Origin: Neelides folsomi
Lineage: Eukaryota > Arthropoda > Collembola > Neelipleona > Neelidae
NCBI GenBank assembly: GCA_034687125.1
Contig: JAQGBZ010000018.1
Location: forward strand, 186,001-250,000
Direction of reading: 5' to 3'
DNA: 64,000 nucleotides
Shown: positions 851 through 43,800 of the stretch, piece after piece
How positions within the stretch are numbered: position 1 is the first letter of the stretch
Layout: the number at the start of each line of letters is the position of its first letter
Notes under the pieces: model-generated
Database searches by the model: none
Told to the model about the DNA's origin: nothing
Seen by the model: only the letters and a program-made list of their open reading frames with translations
Translations under genes and position numbers: made by a program

Positions 851-852
851 GA

Positions 853-4249: not shown

Positions 4250-7200
4250 GGAGTTCATTACTTTTAATTTACCCCTTGTAATAACAGAGTAATTCCCATC
4301 CTACACGAGATGAATGTGAATGGAGGGATTTTGTGTTTTGGGTCTTCGACTGATGATTCCTTTGATTGGGCTGAGGATCCTCCTGCTCGAAGCCGAAGAA
4401 GGCGTAATAAATAAATAGGAACCCCTCGTAAATCGCCTCTCTCAAATTACAAGGAAATTATAGAGACATGAGTGGATTTGATTTCCCCGTTGTCTGGCGG
4501 GGGTTAATGACGGGAAAGGCAGAAGGGCATTCGGACTCACTTCTAACCGTTCACCACTCGCCTCGCCCCTTTGAAATGCTTCAAATCTCTCAAAATTAGA
4601 GGGTAGGATTTCCTGCGAATTTACGATTCTCCCTCCCCCGGCCTTTCTCTCACTTTTCACGATGAGAGTTCACTCGGAGGCTCCACTCCTCCTTTTACAG
4701 CTTTTCCCAAGAACGAGCTAGAGATTAAAAAGAGGAGAGGGCCATTACCACACTGGTCGGTGGCCCTTAACTCATCTGCCGACCTCCGGACTAAAAAAGG
4801 AAAACCGCAGGAGGAAAGCTCTCCATTAGGAAATGAGGAACAGCAGCCCTTGAAAATGACGAGCTTGGTAATTCGGGGTTCCTTAACGCAATTTTAAAAT
4901 CATTAAGACTCCTTGTACTTTGTTCTTCTGACCTCTCCAGCCTAAGTAAAATACCCGTGACCCAAATTCTAAAAAATAATCTTTCTGAGGTCTGCGGTAG
5001 AATTCAATCTATTAAGTATGAAAACACAGCATATTGGGAACGTACGATGCTCTTAATTATTAATTGTACAAGAAATGCATTTGAGTAAACTTAGGTAATC
5101 ATGTCGAAATTTTCTCAACTATTAATATTTTAGATTGTAATTAAATTAAATAATTAAATAGGGCAAATACATTATTTAATGTAAACTTAAATTCGTTCTA
5201 CAGCTTAATTTTTTGATTAAATACATACCTACGTATTTTTATCCTTTAAATACGAATTACAATTTGACAAAAAAACATCACCGTCAATGTATAGATCTTA
5301 TTTAGCTACACAAATATATTCGTGTGTTAGTATAAAGAAGAATGAGTGCGACCCAAAATCTCTGTTGGCATTGCACTGCATAATACAATAGTTCACATCC
5401 TTACATTTATCTCCATTGTCACACATTTAAAAAGATAAGGAGTTTGAGTCTTTGGAGAATTTTGGTTTGTGGAAACTGTTGAGATTGAACGAGGGATTTG
5501 AGAGGATTTCCGGGATCCGGAAGGGGCGAGGCGAGTTGTTGAAGAAAGGAGGAGAGAGGTGAGTGAGTCAAATGGCTTTGTACTTGAGGAAACATGCGAA
5601 ACCCTGTAAATTGTCAGCAGAAAAGAGGTGTGGGGCGAGGGTCGATCAATCACGGCCACAATCGAAGTTCTTTCGCATTCTACATGTGGTCTTCCCTGGA
5701 ACCTGAGTGAGATGAATGGGGGAGGAAGAATAGGCTGGGAAGGGGCTCCAATTTTTCGTCGGCCGTAAAGTGGGAACTTGGGGTCATCCCACGGAAAAAC
5801 CTCATAAGAACCCCATTCTGTCCTCGGGGAGTGCCGAAGTCAAGGAGGCGACTTGTGGAGCGTGTGACTCCAAACGCCTCCTCCGAGTGGATGGTCGGAC
5901 AAAGGGCGTGGGCTCTCCGTGGGGAACAAGGGAATTGCAACAATACTCTGGCCGTCCCAGCCTCCTTCAGCCTCAAGGAGACGAGGCGGAATAATACGAG
6001 TGGCCCCATAAATAATACTCGTATTTCCACATTTACGGCTCCTTCGCCGGAGAGGAAGCTAATGGCCTACGTGGCCCCGGATAATAGACGGACCAACTTT
6101 GCCCCGAATCGCCGAACGACGGCATAAAGTCAAACCTAAAAGGCGTGCCAAAAGCACTACATTTCCCCCCCGAGACTCCTCAATGTGCGGAGGGCAGGAG
6201 AGGACAATGGGAAGGAGAAATGAGACCGAGGGCTTTTTCATTCTTTGGATCGCTAAGGAGATGTTGGCGCGCCTCCTCCGCAGCCCGCCCGAGTAGTGAC
6301 AACAAAGTCACCATTGTCTGCCTCGCGACCAGATTCCACTAACGAGCCGAGAAGGCGATGGAATACCGCGAAAATCACTCATTCCCTCGCAAGACCTTTC
6401 CTGGGAACTTCTGGGACTGAGAAATTGAGACGGAGTCATTAGTCCCAATTTTCAAGCCTTGGAAAACATCCGAGGGTCCTCGTTAACTTCTTGGCTCCAG
6501 ATATTTGAGGAGAAGCATGGAAACTTCCAACGGTCCGCCTCGTGAAATATGCGCCTCACTAAAGAGCTCCCAAGAATCCGTTCTTGTATAAATAAGGTCC
6601 CAAGGATGGGTGGGGAGGATGGAAGGAACACATTAAATTTGGCTCTTTTTCCAATTTCGCCCTCGAGAATGGCTCAGCCGTTTTTTAACTTTTCAAAACC
6701 CTCCTCTTTAATAAACCAAAGTTCATAAATAAGGACCTTTCAAGTTTACAATCAAGAAGGAAAAAGATTTGCAATTGAGGAGATTTGGAAAAGGAAGCCG
6801 GGAAATTAAAGACCTTTTATGATCTCATCTCCTGTTGAGGTAGCCGAGGAGTTGACAAGATAAATTTACTACCGGTTCTTCACACGTTTCTCCGCCTTCT
6901 GTCTCAACTCTCACCAGAGTGAAGAGGTGAGGAACGAGGTTCTTCCTTCTCATGTGTGGCGGTGACTACCCAGTAAGGATTTTTAATTGGGGAATCTCGC
7001 ACCCTTCGAAGGGAAACTACCTGTCTTATCTCTACCGCCAGGCCATTACACAGGCTTCGCTGGGCTTAAAAAGAGAAAAGGGCTTTTGGGTTCCCCTCAT
7101 CAGGTAAGATATGATTTTCCGAGGATGAGGCTCACAGGTGTAGATTCCTCATTGAGCTCCTCAGTTCTCATGGAATGGAGGGATTGTTTGGCAATTGTTG

Positions 7201-10200
7201 TAAGGGTGGTCTCTTTGAGGCTCAAAAAAGCGAGAGAGCCCTTTCGGGGATTCCATTCCTACGATTATTCTCCTCCGAGCCCTATTCTGCCAAGAGCCAT
7301 CCACTTCACTCGACTTTCCCATTATTTGAAAAAATATAAAAGGAGAGCTTCCCCTAATAAGCATCCTCGGATTGCTCCTCCGCGAGGTATCTCAAAGTGA
7401 GGCTTCGCGTGTGCGTGTGGTCCGACCGCTGCCCCAGCTCAGCTCTTCATCTACGGTCAACATTGGGTAATCCTCGGGCAGAAGAGTCAATGGATTCTTG
7501 GATCAGCACAATGAGGAGGCGGAATAAAGACACGGCGGGGATAAGGCGCGGTCCTCGTTCCTTCGCACGCTGTCCACCCGCAAAATTGAGAGTTGAGAGG
7601 ACAACATGAATTGATGGGAGACAAATGATGGTCACCTCCTGGCCTTTGGTCACTTTTCAATCCAGTCGTTTCTTATCTCGCCTCATTCTCTCTCCGCCTC
7701 ATTCTTCTTCTCATTCTTCGAGAGAATGTGAGCCGAAAGGTAAACAACAGATCTTCTCTGACTCGACCCTCAATGAAGGATGGGGTGAGTGGAGGATCTC
7801 GTTTTCCTGCCCTCAAGCCCAGGAGCTCTTCTCGCTCGGTAATAAAAGGATGAGGGGAAATTAGCGTTGGAGCTCTAGGAGCTGAAGTGCCGGTGATTGA
7901 GACGAGCTCCGGATATTGGTTAAGTCGATTCGACGGCGTCGATTATCTTTTATTCTTATGGTTATTGCCCCTCTCCGTGGAACAATGAAGATGATACCTG
8001 ACGGACACGAGAGCAGAGCGGTTTTCCTTTTGACCTATCCTATTCTAATTTCAACGAGAATGTATGGGTCTCCCTGCTGGGCTTCAACTCTCCTTTTTCA
8101 ATTATACCAACACGCATCCCTCAACATCCAAAGGCTGACAATAAACTTGTAACAACGGGCCCATTAAAATATACACCTCGGTACCTGGGCTAGCAGTTCA
8201 TCGCGTGGAGCTCCACTTTGCATATGGCTAATGTGCATCTCGGGTTCTTTTCTCCATCGTAGGCATAAATAGCATTGAAATGGATACTACCGGAGAATGT
8301 ACGATGACGTTTCTCGCATTCACCTATTTATATTACACTACTTCCCTGATGATGGCGAGGGAGTAATAATAATAAGAGTGGAAAATTGTACCTTTTCTCA
8401 GGAGATAATGGAGGGAGAGTGGAACTGGGTTATAGAGTTTCATCCATGGCACGAAGAGGTAAGCGGAGAAGTATAACAAGGAGAATAATGGCCCAAGTTT
8501 CGGAACCACGGTGGCTCGGACAAAGGGCAAGCTGATTGAACCAAACTTCACTCCTTGCCAGATTGATGTTATTGGAAGGAGGCGAAAGGAAGCGACGTAA
8601 CAATGAGAAGGCTCCTCTGACCAAACGCCTGGCCCACAACAATAATGGGTATGAGGAGAAAGGCCGTATCTCTACGGTACATTTTTCCACGGTCCTCCTG
8701 CGTCCCTATAAAGGAAGTCAAAAGGTATATTCCACACGTCAGGGGCACAATCAGGCTCAAATATGAAATTTATATGCGGAGGCGAAAAATGGGAGCGAGG
8801 GTGGGAGTTGCGGTGGGCGATTCCTTTCATCCTCATCTTCACTTGAGGAGGCAAAGGCGGAGAAGTTTCAATCGAAGATGGGGAGATCCCCCGAGGATCT
8901 CCTTCGTGTCTCCTCGAGTCGAATGGGGAAGGCGGGCCTGGTTTCTCTTGAGGGCCAAGAGGAGTGACGGGTTGACACGAGGTCATCGGGGTGGGGCGAC
9001 ACGGACGAAAATGGATTCGACAACTGGCCATTGTGTTGGGCACCTCAACAGATGTCTGCTTTCGAGATGAATAGAACAATAAGTTACTCTTTATGATTAT
9101 GCTGATGAGCCTGGAGAGAGTCAACTTCTCGGCCCCTATGTGTTGGAGACGACTCTTGTTTGACTCCGGGGGAAGAAGTGGAGAATCACGTACTCCCATA
9201 TTTCCATACGACGAAGTAATAATGGGGATGATGAGTGTGAGATAAGGCAGAGGCTGATGGGACTCTTGATTTCATCCCTAAGGAATTTTCTGCCTCAAAG
9301 ACCAGGAAGATAAGAAAACACACACTCCGGGTCTAATAACCACCTTCACTGGTTTCTCTCTATTTACATTTAACTCCGCAGTTACCGGGTTTAGAGGTGT
9401 GGAGAAGTCTCCTTCCTTCACCTCACTTCTTCATAAATATTAATGGGGACCGTCCCTTTATTATGATAATAAAATAGTGGGAGACGGCAGACAAGGGCGG
9501 AACTCCTAAAATATTGCACTCCACATTAAGTCTGCTCGTGGAGGAGACAAAAAAGAGAAGCTTTTGGCACTCTTTGCATCCAGCCACTAATATGATATTA
9601 GCAAAGAGCCGAGATTTTTTACTTTGAGTGGTGGTCGGATTTTTTTCAAGACGCACGAGTGGCCATTAAGAAATATGTCCCATAGTTTTAGTTCTCCTTA
9701 TGCCTGAGGTATGTGATAATTTCTTATGTATTTATTATTGAGTTTGCATGCAGGCTGCGGTGGGAGGTTTCATCTTCTCCCATCAACCATTATTGCCACG
9801 AGGAGACGAGAGGATGAGAAAAACGTGAGAAATGAGAATAAGCGTGGGGCACTGAAAAAAGCCGGTGGACTTGAATCATTTATATTATGTAAACGCGCAA
9901 AGGATCATCATGGGTAAGAGAGCAAGTGGGCTGTGTACGTGGGAGAAAGGCGACTCATCCACTTCAAAGTGTTCAAAGTGGGAAAGGGCCTCCAAAAGGG
10001 ATGTTATATCTGTTTACTCAAATGAGACTGGAGTCTTGGTAAGGTACGGAGTATCTCCTTGGAGATGTTCTCCCATCCAAGTTGTATGAATGAGGGAAAT
10101 CGGGTAAGCTCCCCACTTCACCGCCCCGAAGTGGACAGACTGAGTTGGGAGAGGAAGAACATAAATCTCCGCGGACCTGCTGAAGAGTTTAGAGCCTAAC

Positions 10201-13200
10201 CAAACATCCTAACATGTGTTCTCTTCGTATTATTATATCCATTCTCTTAAGGAGGGATTGAGGAAGAGCAGTTTACTCTTCATGGGAAAGGCGCGCCTTT
10301 TTAAGGAGCTCCAATGCACCTTACATGCACACTCAATGTATTTCTTTTGTGGGCTCGATATTTTTTGAAGGAATGAGGAGGGTTGGGAAAAGTCGTAGTT
10401 AAGGAATTGGGGGAAGAAGTGGGCCGTAAAGTGGCAGACCGCCAGTGGGTGTAAAAGGAGAGGGTCGAGGGACAAGAATGGACAATGGGCGGTGTTGTTA
10501 GGAAAAAGTCGGAGAACACGATGGGAATACTACATGGATTCATGTAGGAAAAACCCGTCCAATCTTGCACTCTTTTTAAAGGATGAGCATGCAAGCCCAT
10601 TTCGTGGATGGAATCGCCATAATTCTCCCAAGAGCCGAAACAACCACTGTGACAAAGGGAACCTTTTTTTCCTTCCACTTACCACCTCGCTCTGTCCGAA
10701 CCCATTTCTTCAAGCCGTATTATAAGATTATTATCCCTATCCCCACCAATCTTCCAATAATAACCTTTACCCATCGGCCCAAGTAACGAGCTTCTTCCTC
10801 CACACGCTTTGGGAAAAAATAAGGAATGCGTGCTCGTGTCGTCTTTACCTTACCTTAATTTCAATTCCCTTTCCTGACACCTTAATATTTTACTCCCAGC
10901 GAGTGACGACGGGGGACGAGGAGGATTTCGGAGAAGATGGAAAGCCTCCTTTTCATTTCCCATTGCCAACATCCAATTAGAAATATATCCCTCGGCCACC
11001 AGAACAGAGATCCACCCCATTGAGCAGGCGAAGATTTGGGGAGAATTGGAAATTGGACAAAAATGCCCAAGATGTTCGTTACGCGCGAGCCCCCAGGAAC
11101 AACTTCATATTTCATTGAAGATATGAGGAAAGTTGTTGAATGTGAGCTGAAATGACTTGGGTGGTTTGCATTTAGCCCAGGTGAGTCCACGAGACCACAG
11201 GAATAGACGGATGAAACCAATAATTTACAATAAAGTTTCAATTTCACTCGTCCTCTCCCCCTCCTCTTTGGATCTCAAGAAGAGAAATAATAAACAGTTT
11301 TTTCCCTCCCTCTCACACTCCCATGGGAGAGGAAAGGCACGTCGGACACGTATTGTGCATTTAAAAGTCTCATTTGAGTTAAGAATCCCTTAAGGATCCC
11401 TATTCACCCTTGCATTAGGGACTCTTGTGTAACTCGGCACTTCTCCGGATTATTTTCCCTCCCGCCGACGTACTTACTCGCCGTGTGGATTGAGAAGTGG
11501 ACTGAGGGTGGCCGGAATTGCTCTGCTTTTCGGCCAGTTCAACCACGAGACCCATTTATTATTTATTTGGCATAAACCACATTTCTCCTAATTCTCTCCT
11601 CTCAGGGGTGGGTGGTCCATATTACACTCCACACGTAGGAATTCTCCGGGCTCTCAAATGAACTTTTTACCCTGAGCGAACCCAGAAGGCTCCTTTTTTA
11701 ATACTCCAATTTCATACTTGATTTTAAAGCGAGGAGGAAAGGAGGCCCCAACAGATCCCCTGAATGACATTTTAATCATTTTCCTCATTTATTTCTTTGA
11801 ATTTCCAATGATTATCCACACTTTCCTCCCTCCATTCATCAAATGCATCTCAATTGGAGATCTAAATGAATCCATACTTACATTTGTACTTGTATACTAA
11901 CATTAAGAGATAGGATAGGCTGGACAGACTTGTAAGTGAGCTTTAATGTGGCTGCTGAACATTATGATAGCACAGATGCATCCTCCACTTTGAAGATTCA
12001 CTTTTAATTTCTCACACTTTAAAAGAGAAAAAGTAATTTATGGTTCCTCATACATAATGTCTCTTTCTTCTGCCCATCACGCGACTCGGTTTCCTCGAGC
12101 CAATTTGCTCTTTTCTCTTAACAAATGCGAGGGAAAAACAGACGAGGTGAAACGGAGTGATATACAAGCTATTTTTCATATGCTGGTTCTTATCAGAACT
12201 AAGAAATGGCCAAAAGGAAAATTTGGTCCCTACAATTTTCCTTTCATAATGAAAATAGGCGGGCAAAAAAGGGCAAGGCGGAGACACCCAAATTACTTCT
12301 CCTTCGGTTCCACTCGAGACGATTGGGGAAAATGTGTGAAAGGGGGGAAGAAAAGGACCTTTCAGTCGACTCCACCTAATATTTTGGGACAGAGATGAGA
12401 AGGAGTGATTAGGAGATTTGAGGCTCATAAGGGCCCTCAATATTCCTCCAAGAAATCGTGAGGGGCAGATGAACATTCGGCCACTGCTCACTCCATGAGG
12501 AGATTAGGGAAGTGGAGCGGAGGGAGAATAAGGTTCGTCAATACAGGTGCCTTCCACTTGTCTCTGTTTTCTTCCCCCGCTCGCCCTAACAAGCCAGAGG
12601 ATGAAGATAAGGATATTTACCCTCAATACATATAGAATTTAGAGTGCCACTGAGGAACTTGTATTCGATAAATATCTCAGTCAACAGAAGAAGAACAATT
12701 TTCCTCCCTTCTTCCTCCAATTACAACGAGATGTAAATGAACAACGGAGGGAATTCGAGGCCTTATTTGCCCTCCATAGTCATACAAATATTTCATATAC
12801 AAAACCGGCCTGAACCATCATTGTGGAATCTGTTATCGTCTCCTTTTAAATTTTATAGCTGGTGCTAAGACCCCGTTCGATCCGCGCTAACTACCAATAA
12901 TAAGCTCACATGGTTCCACAATAGAGGAGGAATTAGGCAAAGGGTGTTTTCAATTGAAAACTTCCGATTGAATGGGGGAAACTTCAGGAAGGTTTAGAAC
13001 TTTGGCCATCGTAAATGGGGAGTAATCCAATCTTTGGATGAAGAAGGGTAAAATGTCCTTTATCCATATTTTGGATCCGCATAGATGTGTGCCATTGAAT
13101 ATTGAAGGGAGGACGTCAAAGGAGTAACAACATCAACATTGGTGGGATAACCGGAGAATTCTCAACTTTGGTCCATTGAGGAGGAGGACAAAGGAGTTTT

Positions 13201-16200
13201 CCCCTTTTCATCTTCGAGACTCGAGAAGTTGGAAACGCAAATAATCGTTAAATGTCTCCTCACTGCCGTTGAGGAGAGAACAAGGATAATGAATGATGGG
13301 GACAAAGGGGAGCGAGAAGCATGAGTGATGGGATGACCCCACCAGGCGGATTGAAAAAATGTGAAGAATGGGCCGATTCGAAAGTTTTGGCTGGGGACAC
13401 TTTGTTTCCTTCCTCCTTGTTTGCTCCCTGGCATTGTGGGGAGGTTGTAAGTGTAGGAACATTACTCTCCTAAACGGCCCTCCTCTCGCCCTCGAGTTAA
13501 CGACGAGTGTGTGGAGGCTAATAAAAGAGTTAAAGGATCCAATTGAGGAGACAGACAGCTACAACCCTGCACCACTCGAGTGGGAAATAAATGGAGGTTC
13601 CGAAGGACTTCCCTCTCTCCTCTCTCGACATGTCGACTGCGAGTCAAAGGACCCACTTGCAAATCCCATCCTCTATTGTGTCCCCTCTTTAAAAGCTAAT
13701 AGGATATATTTGTCCCTAATAATAATAGAGAGAGGATACTTGAACGGATATGTTTATTTCCTCTTGCCTTATTCCACCCGTGGATCCGGTATAGCCGGTC
13801 GAGGGGCGTCGGGGACTGCCCTTGACTTCTGGACACACCATTTATGTACATTTATGTATGAATATCATAATAAGCGAGGGAGATGGAAGCGGATGACTTC
13901 CTATCTCTACACAAGTTGACGAGAATGTTGGATGCGTATCTCCATTTCCATAGCCGTTGGCCGATCCAGCCCATTGTGCCTTCCTTCCTGTGCCTCCACT
14001 TCCCTTTCGCTATTTCTAATTTATACGTTCTCGGTCGAGAGTTTCGGAATTGGCTGCCGCCGACACGAGTTCACTCCACGTTCGGCTGCCTCGTCATTCT
14101 CTCGTGGAGGACGAGAGGATCTGAGCAACACTTCCCATCCATGTATGAGATGAGGTGATTTCTATGTGTGTGTATTAGAGGCCTAAATTAACTTTGGACA
14201 TGGAGGGACGGCCGCTCTCAGGATGCCGATTCATTTCATTTAACTTGGATTGAGGATTTGAATAGAACTGGGAGCGGAGGCTTCCTCTCAGGGCGTGGAC
14301 CGGAAACTTTTATCAGGAGAGGCACTGGGACGAATTATTTTTCACACCCCACACTCCTTTTTGTCATCAAAATGAGTGGTCCAGCCCTGGGAGGATTGGA
14401 AGCCTCGCACGACAGAGGAGACGAACCTGAACAACATGCTTCAATCTTATTATTCAACGACCCTCTAAGGTTAACAGCTAATGACGAGGAGGAGCACGAA
14501 GTGCGAATTGAATTTCATCATGGGAACATCAATTCACCATCGTTGGGAGCAAATAATGGCCAGAGACGGGGGGAATGGGCAGCTCTGTGGCTGGGAAATT
14601 CTAGTTTTTGTCCCTTCAATCGACCAGTTGCCATTGAAGGAACCAATCCTACAGAGTGGGTTTAAATCAAAGGAAAGGTCACGCAGTGGCCTCCTCCAAT
14701 TCTTCAATTAACTTTATGAATGTGGGAGCGAAGGAGTGGAAGATGACAGGAGGAGCGAGTTTCTTATTTATGTAGGCCTACATTCGAGTGTGGGTCTCAA
14801 TGAATCTCATATCAATAATATAGGGAGGTGATTGAGAGTCTGCCGATGTAGAGCGAGCAAAGCATTGAAATTCAAGCCAGTGGCTCGAAGGGAACGGCAG
14901 GATTGCATTTCCTCCTTCAATTCTTCATCTTCACCACACCAAACCGTATTTTATGGTCCCTTCGTGTCCCAGGGAAGGAAGATAAATTTACAGAGGTCTC
15001 GAAGGGATCCACTTGCTCCTCAGGTCGCGGTCCTTATCACTCCTCGACTTTGAACTTGAGAGGAAGGTGGAAACACTTACATGAATGTACCTAGTGGGGC
15101 CACATGTGGAACGTGGGCTCCTTGCAGCGAGCCGTTCGATCCCCGGCACACGAGAAGACGAGGAAGCCGACGGACAGCTCCACTCCCTTCTCAGAATAAA
15201 ATATGTAAAAGAGGGCTCGTAAGATAATGGGGCTGAGGCCGTGAGAGCGGAATGAGAGAAGCGGGCCAGAGGACAACTTCCCTAATACCCTCACAGCCTT
15301 CTGCATCGGAGAAGGAGAGAGAGAAAAAAGTTAATAGGGCTCTCCCAGCTCCTTTTTCTCGCCCCTGGCCCTGCACCTGCACTCGCCCTGGACCACTACT
15401 ACTGTTATTTATTATCTCCTCCCGAGGAATCTCTGCTCATTCAGGTCCCTCCACCACAATCAGCCCAAATGATCCCACAATGCCAACACGAAGGCTCATT
15501 TGACTTCCCCTCCGACGTCTCCGTGGGCTCACAGTGGAGGGCGGATTGGCCGGACGGGTCCAGCGGCGGGGCCTCGAGCTCCACAGTAGCACTTATCTCC
15601 CATGAATTCTAATCGGACCCTCGGAGACTCTCGAGGAGAATAGGATCAATTTCCCCTCATACTTCCTCCTGTCACTCATATCAAACGGGAGGCTGGGACC
15701 TTATATTTATGTTCATGTATACATAGACACTCTTAAATAAGGCGACATTTTATGTGGCTAGTTCAGCTCCAACGAGCCTCTTCCATCTCCGACATGATGA
15801 CATCTTTAAGTTTGAAAAATTACCGAACCTCGGTCCCATCCCACATATTGTTGAGACTGGTGGATGGGAGATATTTCTAATTTTAAATACTTTCGGCTCC
15901 GCTATGATGAAAATAAGGAAGATGATTGACTGATTGGAAAATCGAATTGACACTTGACGGATGAGACTCTAATGATAGTTTTTCATCCTCGTCAATCCTT
16001 TTACATTTTTTATCCCCCTGGATTATATCCAAACGACGTGGAACTTGCCCCATTCCTCCCTTTGACTCCTCGTCTCAGCTCCCGAGGAAAATGAGACGAG
16101 CATGAGAATCGAAATATTTTCATGAATGGAATTGCATCTAAAGGGGAAATGTCAAAGAGTTGGGATTTTTCCCATCCATGGATGGATTTATCAACTATTT

Positions 16201-20560: not shown

Positions 20561-21460
20561 TGATGCTCAGTATTGTGGAAATGAAAAATTGTTTTTCATA
20601 AGGTTCTTCTTTTATTTAATCGTTTAGCATAGGTTCAAATACATGTATAGAAGATGGGGTAAATTTGTAAAGGCAGCGCCATAAATGGCAAAATAGCCAA
20701 AGACAATTATATTGATTACATTTGTATTAGAACTTACAATATATATATTTATAATTATATATGGTACCTTTTCCAATAAAAACATTAACAGATCCCTATT
20801 AATCTTTATTCGGGATTTTAATAAAGGAGGTACTTTTATCTGTGTTCTTTTACTACATAAATATTAAAGTTTTCATGTTATAGTGGCGGCTATCTATCAC
20901 AAAAGGGAAATATTTTTTCATACATGTAAAATGCCGTTTTTAATCATTTCTACATATTTTTCATAATATCTTTAATTATCGATCATATTTACCTATATTA
21001 TTTATAATAATTCTTATTTCATAATATTGATAAACAACTACTCATCGTACAGTAGTAAATAAGATAGTAATGCGCAGAAAATGTATAGAGTAGTAAACAG
21101 AGTCTCAATTTAACAAATATAATAGCCATGTAACAATAAAATTATTTGAATACTTATTACTACTTTAATAAATGATCCATTGTCGGCTTCCGTGTGATGA
21201 ACACTTACATGCATATCTTTATCATAGACATTACTACATACTATACATATAATATGTGTATGTAAGAGGAATCTGTTCGTAGAGAATCAACCTTATTAGA
21301 CACTGCTCTCATAACAGAAGTAAAATGTACGCAAGGAGTAAGATAATGATTGCACTAGATAGGTATTTACATTAAAGTTCTAACGTCGATATTTGCATAA
21401 CAATTCTGTTATAGCGTATATTGAATGGAAGCTACATTGGAGTCAATTGAAAGTGAGTCG
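20561..21460. other. AT-rich pocket just 3' of the hairy gene
   Basis: About 0.9 kb of AT-rich sequence interrupts the GC-rich domain immediately downstream of the hairy stop codon (21627, minus strand). It probably includes the hairy 3' UTR. A minus-strand AATAAA is at 20805-20810 and an ATTAAA at 21164-21169. I cannot tell which, if either, is used. Confidence 0.4.
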
Positions 21461-21626
21461 TGCCTCGGACAAGTGATGAAAAGATAAGGGCGAGTGATGT
21501 CGTGAGCTACACAGCCTTTGCTAAATGAGCCCGACCCAGGCGGAGTGTAGCAGCTTGCAACGTCAATTATTATTATAGATTAGTTCATATGGAGAATTGA
21601 AAAGGAAGAGTCTCTTTGTGGGAAGA

Positions 21627-25808: not shown

Positions 25809-26006
25809 TTTCCTCTTTCCCTCAATGGCCTTGCGAAATCTCGGTCTGGTTTCCTGGAGGATTGATGACGGCTTTTTCTCCTCCCGCGGCTGGCGAAGAG
25901 CCGATGAGGAGAATTGGAATTTCAATTTGCTTCCACCCGTGGTAGACACAGTTTTAGGCTCCGTGTTGGAGTCTTGAAACCTCGTGAATCATCAAGAGCC
26001 CTCGCT

Positions 26007-26016
26007 CCTATTTATG
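26007..26016 (-). promoter_or_regulatory. Candidate TATA box of the hairy gene
   Basis: CATAAATAGG on the minus strand lies about 200 bp upstream of the hairy ATG. That would place transcription start near 25980 and give a 5' UTR of about 170 bases. It is the best TATA-like element in the 250 bp upstream, but such AT words are common here. Confidence 0.45.
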
Positions 26017-29000
26017 CGCGATGTTTTATGGATGGGTTGAATTCACAAAAGAAGGCGACAAGGTCTTTGCTCCACAAATCAATATAATATCAAGAGCAGC
26101 CCCACTTCCCTCACCGACCAACTACTTGACTTGCAGATTAACTCCCTGCCCAATCACCCTCAGTTGTATTTGGGAAGGAAGGATCACAAAGCGAGACCGA
26201 CAAAGAAAAAGAAATCCGTCAATGGAAAACTGAATGAATCCACAGCACTTTCGAACGAGTCTGACGACGACGGGGATTGTCTCCTCTGGTTCGAATTATA
26301 TTCGATAACGAGCAGGTTTCACTCTCTCCGAACTCTTCTTCCTCTAATTCTCTTACTGTATGAGAATATCTGTGCTGAAGGTCCCGTGCGGACGCGAGTG
26401 GGAGAAGTGAGACGAGCGACTGGCTCTGACCAAAGTCTGCTGACGACTGAGGTTCGAGGAAGGAATGAAGTGGGAGAAGGCTGGTGAGACCAACCTGTTT
26501 GAGGAGCCACGCGTAGGAAGAGACGAGTCTCGTGGCTCAAACCCACTGTGGCTCTCCACGGTCTCCGCCAGCTCGTGCAGGGAAGGTCCCTCCTCTCCTC
26601 AAAATCTCGCCTCGTCGCCTTTACCTGCTCCCACGATCTCTCTCATCCTCAGCATTCGCCCTGCGGCTTACGCGACCCAAGTCCTCACCTACTACTGCCG
26701 ATGACGAGGGAGAACCTCACACAATCAACCTGAGGACGAGGAGTAGCGGCTGACGGACACTTCCACCAGTCGCGCCTTCTCTCGTCGCCGCCACTTTTAC
26801 TGAGGGCCAACATCCATTAAATGACCTCTTTTCCGTCCTTTGTTCCCAGATTAGAGAATGGAGGCCAGAAATCATAAATTCCGTCGGTGGGGAATATTTG
26901 GGGATCTCCACTTGCCTGAGCCAATCTCCCGCACTTTCTTTTTTTTATCAATCTCGGCTTTTATCAGTCCGCACCCTTTTACCTAATCTACCACTTCCGA
27001 ATTAATTAAGGAGCTCCGTGACCCAACCGCCCTGCCCAGCGTAAATAAATATAAATTGGTCTGGAAATGAGAATCGTGATGATGGGGAATTTTGCAGCTT
27101 ATGAAATTCATAAGGTTGAAAACTTCCCCATTGTTCATTTTTGTTAAAAAAGGGTCGCCTGATTCGAATGAATAAAAAATGGTGGTCCGCATTAGTTAAA
27201 AACGCTCCTCGCTGTGACAATGCGAATTCCCCATTGTGAGGGTCTTTGAGCCTCCCACCTTTCCCTATCTCTTCCGATCTCGGCAGGTCATTGTGGAAGG
27301 GTGGAAGCCGGCTCAGGTTACAAAGGAGAATCTTCATTTTGAGAGTGTATAAATAAAAAGGGCTACGTTCTGCCCCATGTTCTCTCCCAAATGGGAAGCA
27401 TGAGGAAGAAGGCTGTTGGAATTAATACAATCTTCTCACCATCCATCCATCTCTTCAACGAGACTCCTTTTGTGTGTCCTCATTGTGGGATTTTCTGGCT
27501 CCCCAGACTCCGTAATGATAAGGATCATCTGATCCCCACAAATGAAACGGATCTCAAATCGAGCCCAGCCCTCGCCTGCGTGTGGAGAGATACTTGTGCA
27601 GCAATGGGCCGCCGTCTGTCTCCCTTTGTTCCCTCGAATAAATCCACCTGTAGTTTCCGACTCGCCCAACTTTTCCTTCATCACTCATTATGCTCCTGCA
27701 GAGGCAAGTGGGCTCTCAGGCAGGTGAGGAACGCCGATCTCGTTTCCCTACCTCATTGGGCTGACTCACTCACGGATTTCTTTTCCCATCCAACGTCGCC
27801 GTCACATCCATCACTCACCTCTCCACATAATGCGGATAATGGATTGGGGGAGGGAGAGTAATAGAGCTGAGCTCAAATTCGCGGATTCCGTGCTCCAGAA
27901 AAATTGAATGAGGAGCCTTCCTTGAAAGGTTTCATCCATTAAGGAACCACAAACTAATACCTATATAAATAAGTATAACTATGAACCAGCATACTATACT
28001 TGCATAAAAGAAACCTTCCCATAGGCAGGAGATGCTATTTACTACATACTTTAGATTATAACCACACTCCACACTCCATTATGTTCAATGAATTCATATA
28101 TCTTGCATGTCGTTTCATTATGGGCGAAGATAGGATTGACAGAAATGTCGGGGTGATTGAGTTGAATCCATCCACGTTCTTATCTTCCCCAAATGCGTAC
28201 ATTTCATACGTGGAAGGAGAGTGCGGAATTTGTCTAACTGTAGAGTTGAAAAGAACCTTGAGGCAAATGAATTGGGAAACTAAAGGAAAGTTTATTTGTG
28301 GGGATCCGGTTGTCTAATAGCCACGTTAGATCCCCGGGTCGCCAATTCCTGGTCCCTTTCTTCTCCTTGGGCGAGTGTTGGCGAGGATTGAAATGCACGG
28401 AGGAGAAGGCGGCCGCTGCCGCACGTGCGGTTCCTAACGATCGATCAGTCCTCGCGTTAGGAGCCATCGGGAATTCCCCCTAACTCACTTACCTTCCCGG
28501 GAGAGAAGGGGGAAATCTGGATTTGGCCGAGGCTAACCCCAGTCGCGTGCCGATTATAGATCAAGCTCTCGACAGCTTCCAGCAGAAAAAGAGGAGGAAG
28601 CATCCGGTATCGCAAAGTCCCCTACTTGCGAGATATAATATAACTTCACATTGTGTATTCATTCATGTCTCCGTCCCACCTAGGCCCACCAGCCTTGTGT
28701 GCTCGGAATAGGGTGAGCGTGGAGGAAAAGGAAGTGGGAGTACGTGAGCAGAGCCGCTATACCCATCCTCAAAGATTGTAAATGGGCCAAGAAGGAGATT
28801 GTGTGCCAAAATTCAGCACACGCTTCTCATCCCATTCTTTTTCTCATTTCGTCTCTCCCTGAGCCTGCCAAGGAGAGGACGAAGCTTCTGGTGAGTCCCA
28901 GCCGACAGGAACCTTCGGCTGAGCCTCATTGAGCGGACGGAGCCTTGTGATTGAGCCCAGCCAAAGGAGAAATCCTTTCTCTCCTTGCCACGTTCGAGGA

Positions 29001-32000
29001 TTGGGAGTCAGGAGTTCGCACACGCGATTACGGATTATCTCTCACGAACCCTCTAACTAACTTTGTATTTTCGCCTACCTCTTCCTCCAATCCAAGTCGT
29101 CGTTTAATAACAATGTTATTTTACGAGTCTCTCGGCTGCTACATTCCTCACTCCCTCGGCACAATGGAGCTCGTAAGGAGGAAAAAATAGGAGGCCGACC
29201 TCTCCTGGGAAAATCTCCGTCTCGAACATCTTATATAACTACTCACCCATGGCGGCATATGCCTACAAGGAAATACTCGTCAGGATCTTGAGATTCCCAA
29301 GGAAAAAATGAGACGTGTCTTGGGGAAAACCTTGGTTAATTCATCTTTATGAGGAACTAAGGAGAAAACTCTCTCTGAATCCTTATATCCTTATTATGCC
29401 AAGAGCTTCGAGCCTATTTTTACACCCTCTTCTTTTGCGCCTCTCCACCTCACCACTCTTAATCAATGTAATCAAGTGGCATATAATATTCAAATTGTGC
29501 CTCATCACGGTGCTAAGCCCTGGCGACAGCCGTTGCGCGAACCAAACTCAAGGGCTTTGATTTTGCACTTAATTCCCCCTCATTCCCATTCAAACCTACA
29601 CGCGTGAAGAGCCCATTTCCATTTCAACAAGTTGGAAGGCCCCAATGGGAAAAACCAGAGAGAGACTCGAAGTTTGACATTCCATCACGTGTGTGGGTCC
29701 CGATGATGACCCAAGTGTTCCCTTGTCAAATGTCAAGTCTTCCAATTTGCTTATATTTATTTACCGGTTCTTGGTTTGATTTGGAAGGCGGCAAGGCTGT
29801 TGAGCCATCTCAACGATTAAGGCGTTCCGGGTCGGTGGGAATAAAGAGGAGCTGAATGGGCGGAATGATGGATCCGCTATTCGCATAAATGTCCCCATCA
29901 TCGTCGTTATCTAGATAGGATCCTCCTATTAAGCTTCGACGTTAACTTTTGAGGAGGAAAGGCCGTCAGGTCAGACTGGCTTCATTTTTTCTCCCAAGAT
30001 ATTTATGAGCGTGTTCCGCAAGCTGTGTGTTTACTGTCACCTCTTCTTTTCCTTTCTTCCGCTCATTGAAGCCTGTCCAACACTCCCTCGTCTCTCTCGA
30101 ATCCAGATTGACGCCGTGTTCCTCGTGGAGATCCAACTTGTTCCAATATATGCATGTCGGAATGTGCTCCGCTGATTCGTGGGAAAACCATGGGATCGGT
30201 CGGGGAATCGACCGAGGTTGGCAATTCCCTCCGCACACATTCCATCCCAGCTCGAATGGAAAGAGTATGGGCCGAACAGAGGCAGAACAGGCTTACATTT
30301 TGATTCTTTGATAATTCTTAAAAGTTGATTACTCGCTTCCCTGCCCCCTCGATTCCATCGGGGTTCTCTTCTGGAACTTTGAAGCTACAAGGCCCGCCAC
30401 GCTCTAGCTCTGTAATTCACTTCGGAGGAAGTCTAGTGCGGTGTAGTGTTAAAATTCTTTATAACTCTCCCTCGGAATTATTATTGAAGCTCAGGAGAGG
30501 GGAAAGAGCGGAATGTTCGCCTTGCCCCGTTGTAGGAAGGAACTCCTCTGGCCCATGAGACTGATTTAAAAGACCACCACAGGTGGGCAAGTGAGAAAAG
30601 CCATAGTTACTTATGTACATGCATAATATGGAACATAGATTATGTTCCCGTCCGTGGTCGCAGAATCGGCCTCGGGTTGTCGCATAGCTGGCTGCCGAGG
30701 CTTCCTGGCGCTTTCTCACTTGCGAGTCGTCTCGTGAAGGTATCCGCATGGTCACGGCGGCGGAGAACCCATCACATGGCACGATCCAAGATGCGGCTCT
30801 GACAACGACACTAATTCAAATGAGAGTCCCACTCTTCCCCAACGAGATTACGGGGAAGAGAGAGATGGAATCCTTCGCCCGCGCCAGTGACTGCTTCCTT
30901 CACGATCATGAGTCTCCTTCAAAGTCTGTCAGTCAACCCCGAAGCCTTCAAAGGATCTGCAGAGAGAATCGAACGTCGGGCTTCGATGAGAATTAAATGA
31001 GCTTCTCCGTCTCTCGCCCTGCTAATTGTACTTCAGATCTTCATCCCGTTTTCCCCCATTATGTCGACTCCGCTTCTCCGCAGAGCCCAGAGATTTACAA
31101 TGGAATCCCCACACCGGTCATTTCCAGAAGGGCGAGTGAGTGGAGGCGGAATGAGCTATTTCTGGCTCCAAATTACTGCTGATAATAATAGGTAAGCTCA
31201 TTATACGGTGTAGGTTGGAGCCAAACTTGAGGGCTCTCAAGTGCATGAACTGTGAACCTGATTGATACGAGAGCTCTCTTATTGCGACTGAAGGCCTGCC
31301 CTTATACTATGCGGTCCAGATACCCTGAGCGATAAGTGAAGGAGGTGATAAGACAAGAGTTGATTGTCTCCGTCACAGGGGAAGAGGGCTGCACATGAGA
31401 AATGTCAGCCTCCGCTCTCACGACCTCTGAGTCACGCGTTGAGTCCCTCCGATGTGTGAAAGACAACCGATGATAAAAGTATTCGTAGGAAAACACCACA
31501 GTTCCTCAGGCGAAGAAAAATGTCTCCCGGCCTTTGGCATAACCTCGTGAGCCAAAGAGCTCATCCATCCCCAAACTATCGTAAAATCATAAACTTTGGA
31601 GCCATATGGACTACTACTAGATATAACTATGTATTTATGTTCTCGTTCTTTCATAGTTTGAAGTTTGAACGTCCATGGAGAAATTCGGAAACGTTAAGTT
31701 CTCAAGGCCCATTCTAAACGAGATAAATAATTCGATTCTTGGACTCTGTATAATCTGTATCTGTGGAGTTTGAGGAAACGTTGGAAAGAAATGAACCAGT
31801 GTAGAAGGATGTGAGAAAGAGGATAGTCGTCCTCAACATGATCTCGTGTGAGTGGATCTCTCCTCCTTGGCTCTCTATCTCCACGTGCCAGAGAGAGTCT
31901 TTGAGCTGGGAGCGTGAGTCAATGATGGGTCTCATTGAAGCTGCGGTTGACTCACTCGTCCTATCTAGTCGGCTGGCAGAGTCTCTCCTGAGTCTCCTGC

Positions 32001-35000
32001 GTGAGCAATGCTAATCTCCCTCCCCGGCGTAATAAAATGGAATGAAGATAATAGGGGTATTGCTGAGCTAAGGAGTGGGGCGGATGAGGGAACGGGCGTG
32101 GAATCTGAATCAGGAGTCAACACGGCTCCTCATCCACTCCCACCCCATGCCGAGCCCATGAGGTTTGGGAAGCTGATGAGGAGGAATAGAGCCACAGCGT
32201 ATGTAACCACTTTATCGGGGCGTGTCGCAGCTACATTACATTCCACCCTACATTCACAGATGCGAGAACGGATGATGTCTAAAAGCACTGTCAGGTGAAA
32301 TCAAGGCGTGGATATGAATTCATACACATTTGCATTTTGCCAGGAGAACTCACAGACCTGTGGGCAGAAACAATTCGCTGATCTCAATAATAACTTTTTG
32401 CTAGCATTTTTTATTTTTTCAATTTCCTTCAAAAGATAGGCGACATAAAAATGGCTAGTTAAAGAGTCGAAGTTTAAAATTGTATTTTTGGGAATAATTA
32501 TTTACCATACTATAGATTAGATGACGTTTTTAAAGAACAACTGTTTGACTGCAATAAATGGGAATGTAAAGAGGAATCATTATTAAACGTCGGTAAATGG
32601 TAGCTATTTATTATACACGCAGTTAAGTTCAATCGGCCAAAGTCCTCCTTTCAATCTGAAGTCGATTGTCAACGACCACCTGTGTGGGTTCGCGGCCTCC
32701 GCTCCCACCAGAACCATTAATACACATTATTATCTCTTATTATACGAGTGAGAGTCGATTATATGGAAATGATGTGGAATGAGCTCCGATCCTCTCGTGA
32801 GACTCTCTTTGTGTGTGTGTGTGGAGGAAGGGCGGAGGTTCCAGCAAACTCTCCACCGCCCTTTGGCAATTCAATTTATCTTCATGTAGCATTAAGACTA
32901 ATGTCCATATTTAATTAGTCTCTCGCCGCGGTGGGGTTTCCCCTTCGGCCTCCCTATTACGCCCAGATTACCTTTCTGCGCGGCGGCATCGCGTCTATAC
33001 TCAATTTATGATTCCTCTCATGAATTGGATTATTTGGAAGTGGGAGTGAAACAGGAATTTATTTCTTAATCATAATCATCGACGGCCCCAATCTCCATTT
33101 AAATACGGTTGGCGGCGAGGGCTCGCGTGAAAACCTTTAATACAAATCTTCTGCTTTTCTTCAGAGTTCATTGATTCACTGCACACTCATGTTGTGCCTC
33201 CTTGGCTCCCAATTAAACCCGCACTAAACCCCATTAATAGTAGTCGACAAAGTGTGAAATGAACAAGAAAGTTTTGACGTTTCTCCATTCCTAATTGCCT
33301 CCACACGGACCCCCGTTCTTCAACGAAAGATGAGAAATTAAAGAGAGCAGAGAGGCATTAAGTTTTAAATTAGAAATTCAACATGCCATTTGAATGAAAA
33401 ATTTCTCTGGTAAGGGCTTGAATATTCTAACAAGGCATATCCTCTTCTGCATTGATAGTTTTTATTACGCTTAAATGGGAGGATAGGATTTTTAAACCCA
33501 CTTCGTCTACCTGCCATTAATTTCCTGCGGTAATGGGAGGACGAGCGGAGGGCTAGAGCGGAAAATTTATTAAAGGGAAACCGTAAGCTCTCAAATGTCT
33601 CTCATCCTCTTTTTGTTTACCAAAAAAATATCTTGTTTCAGGCGGAGTTGTAAGCTTGTAGTATGAGATTTGCATAAAATTGAGAAAGTAATTCAAGTTG
33701 TGAAGGGGAAGGGTGAACCAGTGGGAGTAATGGGAAGAGCACGAAAGACATGTCAAGCAGAGAAGCTTCCTTAATTCCTCTTCCCAGATCCGCGTCTCCG
33801 TGGTCAAAGAGAGTCTCATCTCATTCACATGGGGAAAAAAGTGGCTCCCTTTGGTACTTCTGGTTCTCCCAGTGGAAGAGCCGCGTAATCAGTCAGAGGC
33901 TCAGAATGAGTGACAAGGACCCACATTCACTCGCATGCAAAGTGAGGCCTACTAGAGATATTCGGGGATCCCTCCAGGCCCTCTTCTGCCTCATTTCCAT
34001 CCATCCATCCAACAAGGAGTTGAGTCGAGACAGGGCGACCCGCCTCCTTTCCTTCCTTTACAAATTTAATCCGACCTACACCATATTCCCCCTTTGAAGG
34101 CGAATCTTACACGCTAAAGGTCCAATTCAATTCGGTTGCGATCAGAGCATCACAAGACTCACAACGAACCAGAAAATGGATCTTCTCCACTCCGCTCATT
34201 GTGGTTGGGGAAAGTCCAATTCATTGCACGAGTCGAGATTTTGCAGAGGTTTCCACGCACGAGGTGGAGGAAACATGGAAATGGTGAATGAATATTTAAC
34301 CATGTCTCCTACCTCGTCCTGTGTCGCGCCTCTTCAAAGTTCACGTCGGAGCCATTTGTATCTTTCACAGCCTTCTTATCTCCTTCTTTGTACCCAAATT
34401 GAATGGACGATTACTTGAAAATCGGAAAATTGTTCATTTACATAATGTCTGTCGAATGTGTCATTCCCCATTTGCTCGTCGGGAAGAGATAACTCGGCAA
34501 AGTGAGAAGGAGATTAAAGGGATCGGATTATACGCTCCATACCCATTTGCCTCTCATTTCGATACTTTACATTATTACGCTTCTCAAATATGCACCAGTC
34601 GCATCAGGACTTTGTCTTGTATCGAGAATGTAAATAACATGTGAACGTGCGAGTAGTCTTTGGAGGACACATTGGTATGTGAGGGAGGGGATCTCATAAA
34701 GAAAAAGTCGAACTGAATATGCTATTCATAACTCGGCTGCCATGCCTTGATAAGAGAGGAGATAGGCGGAAAGGTAAAAAATAAATGAAGGAATCCGCCC
34801 ATGAGATTCAGATCCGATCTGTCTATGTCTCTTTCCCATGTCAGCGGAATTAGATTTGAGGCTGAGCCGTGGGCTTTCCTCCCTCAATCCATTCACCAAT
34901 TTGTCGAATCCAATTCCACCTTTCCTCCGATCTCTTCAGCCCACCTCAAACCTTCAATTGCTCAGCCTTGCGTTTTTCATGTGTTTCTCCGCCGTGGTGA

Positions 35001-36900
35001 TATGAAGTTTCCTCGATGACGGCAACGGGCTCGTAATTCCTTGAGCCTTTCGTGCCTCGGGATGGAATGAGGAGAGATGAGGACGGATCATTTCAGTGAC
35101 AACAAATGGATTTTCATTCCATTAGCTCGTAGCCTCCCACTCGCCTCCTCATTCCGGACGGATAAAAGGAGAGCTTATGTGCAGGGAGCGGGCGAGGAGG
35201 TCAAGAATAGGTCACACGTGTTGGAATCCCCAAATGAACTCGGCTCATCCCTCACGTCCTCTCAGCCCTCTCGCAGGCAGACCTCAATTGAAGGAGGGCC
35301 GCTCTGAATTAGAATATAAAGGTCTACATTCCCCACGATCCATCAGTTCCAAGACCTTCTGCCCATGTGGATCGTGCCCCCTTCGGAAGATTCATCTCGC
35401 TGGGTCATTGGTGAGGGAAATTATAACCCAATGAACATAATCCCACTTTAACAGAGATGATATCACATAAATCCTCGGATTCCAAAGTAGGATTTCCCAA
35501 AGGGTCAAGGAATGCGAGGAGGGCTGTAGGAGATGTCTCGTGATGAAGGAAGGGATTTTTTCGTTGACGAGCGGAGCTCGCGTAGAATGTTGATAATGAG
35601 ACAGGGCAAGAGATTCACGTCCTGAGCCCCTCAGTAATTCCGCATTATGGGATCGCCGTCGTCTCGGCCCGCCCTTGCCCTCTCCACATCTCCAAAAAGT
35701 GGAAAGAGAGGCCGATGATTATGCATTAAAGCAGCTCGGCCGACCCGACCACGTCCATGCATAAATCTGCCTTAGCTCTAAACTACTCGTCTCTATTCAA
35801 GTCAGACGGCGAGGCTGAGAGTGTTCGGAGGAAGACACGAGGTGAGCTGAGTGGAGATCATCGCTTTCGGGGATCTGGGCATGGATTGAAATGAGAAAGG
35901 GTCTTTACCAACTCCCTCGAGCGTCCCCATCGAGTGAGGTAGGGAGATTAGTTAGGCAAAGAGGCGGACGAGGAATCCACATCTCCCGGCCATCATTACC
36001 GAACCATCTCCAGAGGCACACGAAAGAGACTGAGAGAGGCTCAGATGGATTTCATCCCTTCGTGCACCTGAGATTTCATTTCATTAGCCGGGCTCTGACA
36101 GAGAGTGGGAAACAAGGGGAGAAGGATTAGTACGTAACTTGGTGGGCTGGCAGTGGCAGTGTGCCTCTCCTCTAATTTCTTTCAGAGAGGGTCGAATTAT
36201 AGATCCACACCGCCTTAAGTTAAACATGAGCGGGAGCTGGTTGATGATAATGATGGGGCCTGGGAAGGAGATTCGCCCCTTAGATAATAAAGATAAACTC
36301 AACCTTCGACATTTATTGCGTCGGCCAAATTACATGTGTGGACGGAGCCTCGGACTCTCTCGGATGTGAGACAATGGCCCGCAGGCTCCTACTTCAGAGT
36401 TAACATCAAATCTTGGCCCATTGGGATTCAGGTAGTGTCCACAGAGCCACACTCCTACCTCCTTCAGCCGCATATTTGCCTAATGACGACGGCGATGTGG
36501 AGTCAGAAAACCCAGAGCCATGGGGCCATTAAGTATTAACTCCGATGGTCCGCCTCCGCCCTCGCTCAGCCAACGTCCCATAAAAGCCAACACGTGCGTA
36601 ATATATTGGGCTCTGTGGGCAAACACTGGCCAGGGGACAGCGAGTACGAGGTGATTATAATTAAAGGCCTTCTACCCCGTGAGCCTCACTGGACGGACGC
36701 TTATTACTCGCTGTAATTTCCCTATAACAAGCGTAAATAAATTATGGGAATATTTTACCCGAACTCTCAGCTCCCGCTTTAAAGCACATCGCAGCCGAGA
36801 AAAAACATGCGAGATTTGTAATCATAAACAACGTGAGATCTATTGAGGATCCACTCTGAGCAGAACATGTTGTGCTTTTTCGCACAAAATCTAAGCTTTT
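26017..36900. other. GC-rich gene-poor domain, part upstream of hairy
   Basis: The texture continues that of 4.25-20.5 kb: mixed composition, many CTCC/GAGG words, frequent ATAAAT and TTAAT-type homeodomain-like words, and CACGTG-core E-boxes at several places (for example near 28424, 29690, 31883, 35217 and 36593). An AT-rich pocket lies at about 32340-32620. I find no gene, RNA gene or recognisable transposon. Composition falls back to AT-rich at about 36900. A regulatory role for hairy is inference. Confidence 0.55.
28419..28430. promoter_or_regulatory. Perfect 12-bp palindrome with an E-box core
   Basis: CCGCACGTGCGG is a perfect palindrome centred on CACGTG, about 2.4 kb upstream of the hairy start. 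HES proteins bind class B (CACGTG) and class C (CACGCG) sites, so it could be an autoregulatory site. One such site could also arise by chance in 30 kb of GC-rich DNA. Confidence 0.3.
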
Positions 36901-39498: not shown

Positions 39499-39500
39499 TA

Positions 39501-40087: not shown

Positions 40088-40089
40088 TA

Positions 40090-43571: not shown

Positions 43572-43800
43572 TAACAATATTTAATTACTTGACATAAAAT
43601 AAAACATTACAATTGTTTAAATTATTCGAAATAAGTTACTTTATATTCCTCTATAATTTCAGGTTTATCTTTATAATAAAAAAACCCTTAATATAAATTG
43701 TTTGGAAAATCCCCCAAAAGTGCGCATTATATAGTGTATACTAAACTCAAGAGCAAGACAATGCAGTTCCTAAAAGAACTTCATAAGATTTCTCTTCCCA

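What the first reader, a model, noticed from the sequence alone, without database searches (positions are those of the whole stretch)
4250..36900. A roughly 33-kb GC-rich, transposon-poor domain centred on a single hairy/HES gene
The sequence switches at both edges between very AT-rich DNA and a distinct texture that is CpG-containing and dense in GAGG/CCTC words, with no long A/T runs. Hand counts were 39/60 and 33/60 G+C inside against 4/60 in a flank line. Only one gene is visible inside. The flanks carry transposon-like elements, but I recognise none inside. Developmental regulators often sit in large regulatory landscapes, but such a sharp compositional domain is unusual. It could reflect dense constrained regulatory DNA, a distinct chromatin or mutation regime, or long noncoding transcription.
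Basis: partly seen in the sequence, partly recalled or inferred. Interest (0 to 1): 0.75.

Follow-up and report, generated by a model that had tools for sequence, protein, structure and literature searches.

The report
GC-rich regulatory domain around hairy gene
In an AT-rich arthropod genome, the hairy gene is the only gene found in a sharply bounded 31-kb GC-rich noncoding domain, and the same DNA texture was found around cut, engrailed-type and some other homeobox genes, so regulatory landscapes may be partly visible there in raw sequence.

Summary
Segmentation of the window returns three pieces; the middle one, 5471-36920, has GC 0.464 against 0.322 and 0.315 outside. One gene was found inside: a four-exon hairy/HES gene ending in WRPW, with a 0.27-GC distal 3'UTR. 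The CpG ratio is not raised.

The domain is an outlier: 2 of 40 random probes reach GC 0.42. It is not unique. The same GC level and dinucleotide signature recur at cut (about 55 kb), around an engrailed-class pair, and in patches at six further homeobox loci. Near flanks of Hox and proteasome genes lack it, as do most probes near bHLH genes. The texture is noncoding, and a 3-kb piece tested is single-copy.

Best reading: hairy's cis-regulatory landscape, kept free of the AT-rich, transposon-bearing background. A regional mutation or gene-conversion regime remains open: the AT-rich 3'UTR speaks against it, hairy's GC-rich silent sites speak for it, and third codon positions of 30 homeodomain exons show no significant trend. 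Conservation, chromatin and transcription could not be tested. Closest known kinds: genomic regulatory blocks, transposon-free regions, GC-elevated Drosophila enhancers. Unusual here: sharpness, contiguity, GC-rich polarity.

The parts
5471..36920 (.). GC-rich, GAGG/CTCC-dense, mostly noncoding domain (GC 0.464)
   Evidence: Segmentation; 300-bp windows; dinucleotide signature and no period-3 signal
4301..5000 (.). GC-rich outlier just left of the domain, separated by an AT-rich gap at 5001-5470
   Evidence: 100-bp GC profile
25713..25808 (-). hairy/HES coding exon 1 (start codon at 25808)
   Evidence: Translation, splice donor, sequence
24984..25079 (-). hairy/HES exon 2 (basic region and helix 1)
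   Evidence: Translation, splice sites; genome-wide HLH search lists C18:210990-211079
23423..23545 (-). hairy/HES exon 3 (helix 2)
   Evidence: Translation, splice sites
21627..22295 (-). hairy/HES exon 4 (Orange domain, C-terminal WRPW, stop)
   Evidence: weak Hairy_orange match, E 0.0023, below the Pfam cut-off
20530..21440 (-). AT-rich distal 3'UTR of hairy (GC 0.274), with AATAAA/ATTAAA signals at 20537-20541 near its end; transcript end inferred
   Evidence: GC, poly(A) signals (nine such hexamers lie in 20300-21626); the only long AT-rich stretch inside the domain
26010..26016 (-). TATA-like box about 200 bp upstream of the start codon
   Evidence: Read by eye; inference
26050..36920 (.). 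Upstream half of the proposed hairy cis-regulatory landscape (about 11 kb)
   Evidence: GC and texture; no coding match outside hairy's own domains bar one marginal hit in the domain
5471..20450 (.). Downstream half of the proposed hairy cis-regulatory landscape (about 15 kb)
   Evidence: GC and texture; as above
817..1869 (+). Left flanking gene, Syntaxin-18-like (AT-rich context)
   Evidence: Pfam Syntaxin-18_N, E 2.9e-11
47409..51725 (+). Right flanking gene, SHPRH-like (AT-rich context)
   Evidence: SNF2-rel_dom E 1.1e-63 and SHPRH helical domain E 2.9e-29 for 47409-50435; frames 50487-51725, joined to it by inference
39495..40092 (.). Dispersed inverted-repeat element (MITE-like) in the right flank
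   Evidence: Matches on many contigs; inverted repeats
42946..43879 (.). Second dispersed element in the right flank
   Evidence: Match on C81 at 83% plus shorter matches elsewhere

Best explanation
The domain is the noncoding cis-regulatory landscape of the hairy gene. About 26 kb of enhancer-like DNA on both sides of the gene, plus its introns, has been kept largely free of the AT-rich, transposon-bearing background. Shown: the sharp domain, a single gene found, noncoding texture, and recurrence of the same texture at cut, an engrailed-class pair and parts of other homeobox loci. Inferred: that the texture marks transcription-factor-bound regulatory DNA under purifying selection; that selection against insertions and against AT drift keeps it contiguous; and that its edges mark the reach of hairy regulation between two AT-rich neighbouring gene regions.
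For: Sharp three-part segmentation. No protein family beyond hairy's domains apart from one marginal match, in 117 frames scanned; 0 of 50 domain pieces show a period-3 signal above 4, against 3 of 9 coding and 2 of 31 flank pieces. Dinucleotide signature shared with cut-domain probes (delta 39) and other probes at GC 0.42 or more (46), as close as the two halves of the hairy domain are to each other (43), and far from probes under GC 0.32 (137), window flanks (162) and coding (112). 35 of 80 probes on eight homeobox-bearing contigs reach GC 0.42, against 2 of 40 random (Fisher p 6e-6); six of the eight were partly chosen for GC-rich near flanks. For the other two (engrailed-class pair and NK2, near flanks 0.34-0.40), 6 of 10. 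A 3-kb domain piece has no second copy found, while the right flank holds dispersed elements. The hairy 3'UTR is exempt (GC 0.274). Verified Drosophila enhancers have raised GC, 0.45 against 0.37 (PMC2394749, passages).
Against: The domain is nearly uniform: SD of 500-bp GC is 0.034-0.035, against 0.023 for a Markov model; patchy enhancers with neutral spacers should look more uneven. No 6- to 8-mer stands out above a Markov expectation (largest z 2.8). Of 27 motif entries, POU-like ATGCAAA is the clearest excess (9 against 2.6), Caudal- and TCF-like cores are mildly raised (z 2.8, 2.7), GAGAG is not enriched, and PHO and BEAF cores are depleted. Hairy's four-fold sites are GC-rich (0.65) against 0.32-0.38 in neighbouring genes, as a regional bias would give. 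Hox near flanks and most bHLH probes lack the texture; Pax6 surroundings at C9:339-352 kb are AT-rich (0.29-0.35). Conserved noncoding elements in studied animals are usually AT-rich against their surroundings (PMC3826495, section 8). No conservation data.
Confidence: 0.55

Rival explanations
1. Regional mutation or repair regime, or GC-biased gene conversion: a chromatin or recombination domain pushes all its sites towards GC, with no need for function.
For: Near-uniform GC; GC-rich introns (0.43-0.46) and four-fold sites (0.65) of hairy; the texture is a low-order dinucleotide signature rather than specific motifs. With strands corrected, mean GC3 of homeodomain exons rises from 0.52 (flank GC below 0.33, 10 exons) to 0.63 (0.40 or more, 7 exons), a trend that is not significant.
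Against: The 0.9-kb distal 3'UTR inside the domain is AT-rich, its far edge near poly(A) signals. Over 30 homeodomain exons GC3 against flank GC has rho 0.19, p 0.31 (0.29, p 0.14 without two exons of one long open frame), four-fold sites rho 0.06, p 0.73; Hox exons in 0.28-0.31 flanks have GC3 0.46-0.65. Sharp edges and association with particular regulators.
Confidence: 0.25
2. Ordinary compositional mosaic: GC-rich patches occur through the genome and hairy sits in a long one by chance.
For: 12 of 40 random probes have GAGG-type words at 20 per kb or more; probes of GC 0.36-0.42 have an intermediate signature (delta 70); patchiness at C3, C35 and C7.
Against: 2 of 40 random probes reach GC 0.42, 0 of 20 on the same contig outside the window, against 35 of 80 at homeobox loci, partly selected. 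Long runs at hairy, cut and the engrailed-class pair.
Confidence: 0.12
3. Hidden transcription unit: a long noncoding RNA or unrecognised coding genes fill the domain.
For: Many long open frames inside, up to 199 aa in the noncoding part.
Against: Open-frame numbers match second- and third-order Markov sequence on the 5.5-20.4k side and are about 2 SD high on the 26-36.9k side. No period-3 signal, one marginal Pfam match besides hairy's domains, no Rfam hit. A noncoding RNA cannot be excluded without RNA data.
Confidence: 0.05
4. Foreign or mis-assembled segment (horizontal transfer, contaminant, chimaeric join).
For: Abrupt edges and distinct composition.
Against: It carries an animal hairy gene with introns, and its signature is shared by other loci of the genome.
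Confidence: 0.03

Closest known systems
Genomic regulatory blocks (GRBs) and GRB-TADs
   Same: A developmental transcription factor in a large noncoding territory with sharp limits and few transposons seen.
   Different: GRBs are defined by conserved noncoding elements and synteny, not composition; neither could be tested here. CNEs studied so far are AT-rich relative to flanks (PMC3826495 section 8); this domain is GC-rich.
Transposon-free regions (TFRs) of vertebrates
   Same: Tens of kb around developmental regulators lacking transposons (PMC2241635, passages).
   Different: Vertebrate TFRs span a wide GC range (29-69% in human, 29-52% in zebrafish) with no correlation between orthologues; here GC marks the domain itself. 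Absence of dispersed copies was shown for only 3 kb.
GC-elevated cis-regulatory modules of Drosophila
   Same: Verified enhancers average GC 0.45 against 0.37 for other noncoding DNA (PMC2394749, passages), close to 0.46 against 0.32 here.
   Different: That is a property of single modules; here it runs for 31 kb almost without gaps.
GC isochores / gBGC domains
   Same: Regional GC shift, with GC-rich silent sites in hairy.
   Different: Tens of kb with sharp edges and an AT-rich 3'UTR inside; third codon positions show no significant link to flank GC in 30 exons.

Membership tests
Genomic regulatory block | Developmental regulator as the target gene | tested here: met
   hairy/HES gene with bHLH and WRPW
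Genomic regulatory block | Cluster of deeply conserved noncoding elements with conserved synteny | not testable with these tools
   No related arthropod genome held
Genomic regulatory block | Edges coincide with contact-domain boundaries | not testable with these tools
   No Hi-C
Transposon-free region | At least 10 kb without transposon insertions | tested here: inconclusive
   3 kb single-copy; no internal direct repeat families; the 14.5-kb query was not scored
GC-elevated enhancer DNA | Noncoding GC about 0.45, above other noncoding DNA | tested here: met
   0.464 against 0.315-0.322
GC-elevated enhancer DNA | Drives expression in vivo | not testable with these tools
   Needs reporter assays
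CpG island | CpG observed/expected raised over surroundings | tested here: not met
   0.78 inside, 0.90 outside
Isochore / GC-biased gene conversion domain | All site classes, silent sites and UTRs included, shift with regional GC | tested here: inconclusive
   Against: AT-rich 3'UTR inside. For: hairy four-fold GC 0.65. Homeodomain GC3 against flank GC rho 0.19, p 0.31 over 30 short exons, not significant
Protein-coding gene cluster | Coding periodicity and known domains | tested here: not met
   0 of 50 pieces with period-3 signal above 4; Pfam over 117 frames finds hairy's domains and one marginal match

The most novel reading that the evidence does not exclude
This genome has a second, chromatin-defined class of noncoding DNA with its own sharp-edged composition (GC about 0.46, GAGG-rich, TA-, GC- and AC-poor). 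It is laid over whole regulatory domains of selected developmental genes (hairy, cut, engrailed class), so contact or Polycomb-type domains could be read directly from raw sequence.
Probability: 0.25. Interest if true: 0.75.

Novelty: new variant of a known kind. Interest (0 to 1): 0.5.

Why it matters
If regulatory landscapes in an AT-rich genome carry a compositional signature with sharp edges, their extent can be mapped from one genome without alignments or chromatin data. The contrast between GC-rich domains (hairy, cut, engrailed-class pair) and the AT-rich near flanks of Hox genes offers a test of whether constraint, chromatin state or mutation bias shapes noncoding composition.

Tried and rejected
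CpG island: rejected, the CpG ratio is lower inside than outside. Hidden genes or long ORFs: open frames are mostly explained by low-order composition; Pfam finds hairy's domains and one marginal match. Specific motif: no 6- to 8-mer above Markov expectation; among 27 motif entries recalled from memory GAGAG is not enriched (165 against 180), PHO and BEAF cores are depleted, POU-like ATGCAAA is raised (9 against 2.6). Periodicity of 10-11 bp: none. General rule for developmental genes: not supported by Hox near flanks or bHLH probes. Forkhead loci: 1 of 10 probes at or above 0.42. Species: arthropod by my reading of Hox proteins; COX1 was translated but not compared with anything; no species named. 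Literature: searches listed no paper that I recognised as describing such GC-rich domains in an arthropod; the library is partial and I read passages of four papers and one full section of one of them. Searches (plasmid search with a hairy exon; solved structures) found nothing. Corrected on checking: one search took the wrong strand for at least three exons (L010, L014, L027); one search repeats it on the right strands. The correlation rose from rho 0.11 to 0.19 and stays non-significant. I therefore lowered the best explanation from 0.58 to 0.55 and raised the regional-regime rival from 0.22 to 0.25.
Full report
Observation. The window belongs to a 75.1-Mb, 840-contig assembly (contig C18, 186001-250000). 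GC was profiled in 1000- and 500-bp steps. Recursive segmentation with no preset edges gives three segments: 1-5470 at 0.322, 5471-36920 at 0.464, 36921-64000 at 0.315. In 300-bp windows, 505 of 623 inside and 20 of 613 outside reach 0.42. GAGG/CCTC and GGAG/CTCC are each 2.7 times the mononucleotide expectation; CTAG, GTAC and GCGC are strongly depleted; the CpG ratio is 0.78 inside and 0.90 outside, so CpG is not a mark of the domain.

The gene. Four exons on the minus strand with consensus splice sites encode a hairy/HES protein: basic region and helix 1, helix 2, an Orange-domain start (Pfam match below its cut-off) and C-terminal WRPW. The distal 3'UTR (20530-21440) has GC 0.274, with AATAAA/ATTAAA signals at 20537-20541 near its far edge among nine such hexamers in 20300-21626; the transcript end is inferred. 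A TATA-like box lies near 26010-26016 (read by eye). The neighbours are a Syntaxin-18-like and an SHPRH-like gene, both in AT-rich DNA.

Noncoding content. Of 298 open frames of 50 aa or more in 5000-37300, I listed the 140 longest and scanned 117 of them; those left out were shorter ones and some overlapping hairy. Pfam found HLH in two, Hairy_orange in one and a marginal CSLinker match in one. No tRNA, no Rfam family at gathering threshold, no internal direct repeat family of 24 bp or more and four short inverted pairs. None of 50 domain pieces has a period-3 signal above 4, against 3 of 9 coding and 2 of 31 flank pieces. A 3-kb piece (28001-31000) matched only itself in the genome; a 14.5-kb piece could not be scored. 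A right-flank piece of 14.5 kb has 57 matches from three dispersed stretches.

How rare. Forty random 700-bp probes average 0.342, with 2 of 40 at or above 0.42; twenty 800-bp probes on the same contig outside the window average 0.333, with 0 of 20. Further groups: proteasome-gene flanks 0.308 (0 of 24; one exon for each of 12 places, from 20 loci; with all 20 loci, 0 of 40); flanks of seven Hox loci 0.296 (0 of 14); probes at bHLH genes 0.316 (2 of 40, from 22 genes at about 6 kb, one at 12 kb); non-Hox homeobox flanks 0.382 (14 of 42, from 21 loci). The homeobox loci are the 30 best of 93 matches; two inside a 1984-aa open frame (L017, L023) were dropped. As a length control, random probes cut to 300 bp give 8 of 80 pieces at or above 0.42, against 33 of 80 at homeobox loci. 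Hox was sampled only within about 1.5 kb of homeodomain exons; one random probe inside that contig (C20:179336, L085) has GC 0.397 and 24 GAGG-type words per kb, so parts of the Hox cluster may carry the texture.

Other domains. At cut (C9), the nine probes from 232 to 287 kb have GC 0.40-0.57 and those at 225 and 290 kb are 0.38 and 0.33, so the domain spans about 55 kb. On the same contig a Pax6-like gene at 348 kb has probes of 0.29-0.35 around it. The pair of engrailed-class genes (C40) has 4 of 5 probes over 75-107 kb at or above 0.42. NK1, Tlx/NK cluster, scro-like NK2.1, POU, Gsx and NK2 loci are patchy. Overall 35 of 80 probes on eight homeobox-bearing contigs reach 0.42. Six of the eight were chosen partly because a near flank was GC-rich; the engrailed-class pair and NK2 loci (near flanks 0.34-0.40) were not (6 of 10 probes, Fisher p 3e-4). 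Among bHLH genes one other locus (C7) has 6 of 10 further probes at or above 0.42; it too was chosen for a GC-rich first probe. Forkhead loci give 1 of 10. Gene names other than hairy are my reading of homeodomain sequences.

One texture. Composition-corrected dinucleotide signatures put cut-domain probes (delta 39) and other GC-rich probes (46; 11 new probes, 49) as near the hairy domain as its own two halves are to each other (43). AT-rich probes (137), window flanks (162), coding (112) and hairy's own 3'UTR (263, only 0.9 kb) are far. So the domain is the long, clean case of a noncoding class seen elsewhere in the genome, not a foreign insert.

Mechanism. Shown: a sharp noncoding class frequent at some developmental regulators. 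Inferred: it is regulatory DNA. Against a regional mutation or gene-conversion regime: the distal 3'UTR inside the domain is AT-rich, which a blind regional process should not respect. Over 30 homeodomain exons GC3 (mean 0.57) is not significantly linked to flank GC (rho 0.19, p 0.31; 0.29, p 0.14 without L017 and L023; four-fold sites 0.06, p 0.73), and Hox exons in 0.28-0.31 flanks have GC3 0.46-0.65 (which corrects a strand error). For such a regime: mean GC3 does rise from 0.52 to 0.63 across flank classes, hairy's four-fold GC is 0.65 against 0.32-0.38 in neighbouring genes, and GC inside is nearly uniform (SD 0.034-0.035 against 0.023 simulated). The exons are short and constrained in protein sequence, so the test has little power; the UTR is one case and may be AT-rich for its own function.

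Comparison. Genomic regulatory blocks and their contact domains (PMC5585340, passages), vertebrate transposon-free regions (PMC2241635, passages) and GC-elevated Drosophila enhancers (0.45 against 0.37; PMC2394749, passages) are the closest. Conserved noncoding elements studied so far are AT-rich against surroundings (PMC3826495, section 8). What seems new is a contiguous, sharply bounded GC-rich landscape of 31-55 kb in an AT-rich arthropod genome at some regulators. I found no paper describing it in the searches listed, which is weak evidence of novelty.

Limits. Conservation, chromatin, transcription and polymorphism were not testable. 

Noticed in passing
G000:C20:95739-382110 (L005-L008, L012, L013): Arthropod Hox genes (Ubx, Antp, ftz, Scr, Dfd, Hox3 by eye, with further homeobox hits at 361 and 382 kb) in one orientation on one contig; near flanks are AT-rich (0.26-0.34), though a random probe at 179 kb (L085) is 0.397.
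   Followed up: partly
window 39495-40092: MITE-like element with terminal inverted repeats and relatives on many contigs.
   Followed up: no
window 42946-43879: Dispersed element with an 83% match on C81 and shorter end matches elsewhere.
   Followed up: no
window 5001-5470: AT-rich gap of about 0.5 kb between a GC-rich outlier (4301-5000) and the main domain; could be an insertion or a transcript end.
   Followed up: no
G000:C13:278472-282011 (L017, L023): 1984-aa open frame holding several homeodomain matches, probably a zinc-finger homeodomain (zfh-type) gene by recall.
   Followed up: no
window 26050-36920: Open frames of 80 aa or more are about 2 SD above a third-order Markov expectation on the upstream side (3.5 against 2.6 per kb), without coding periodicity.
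   Followed up: partly
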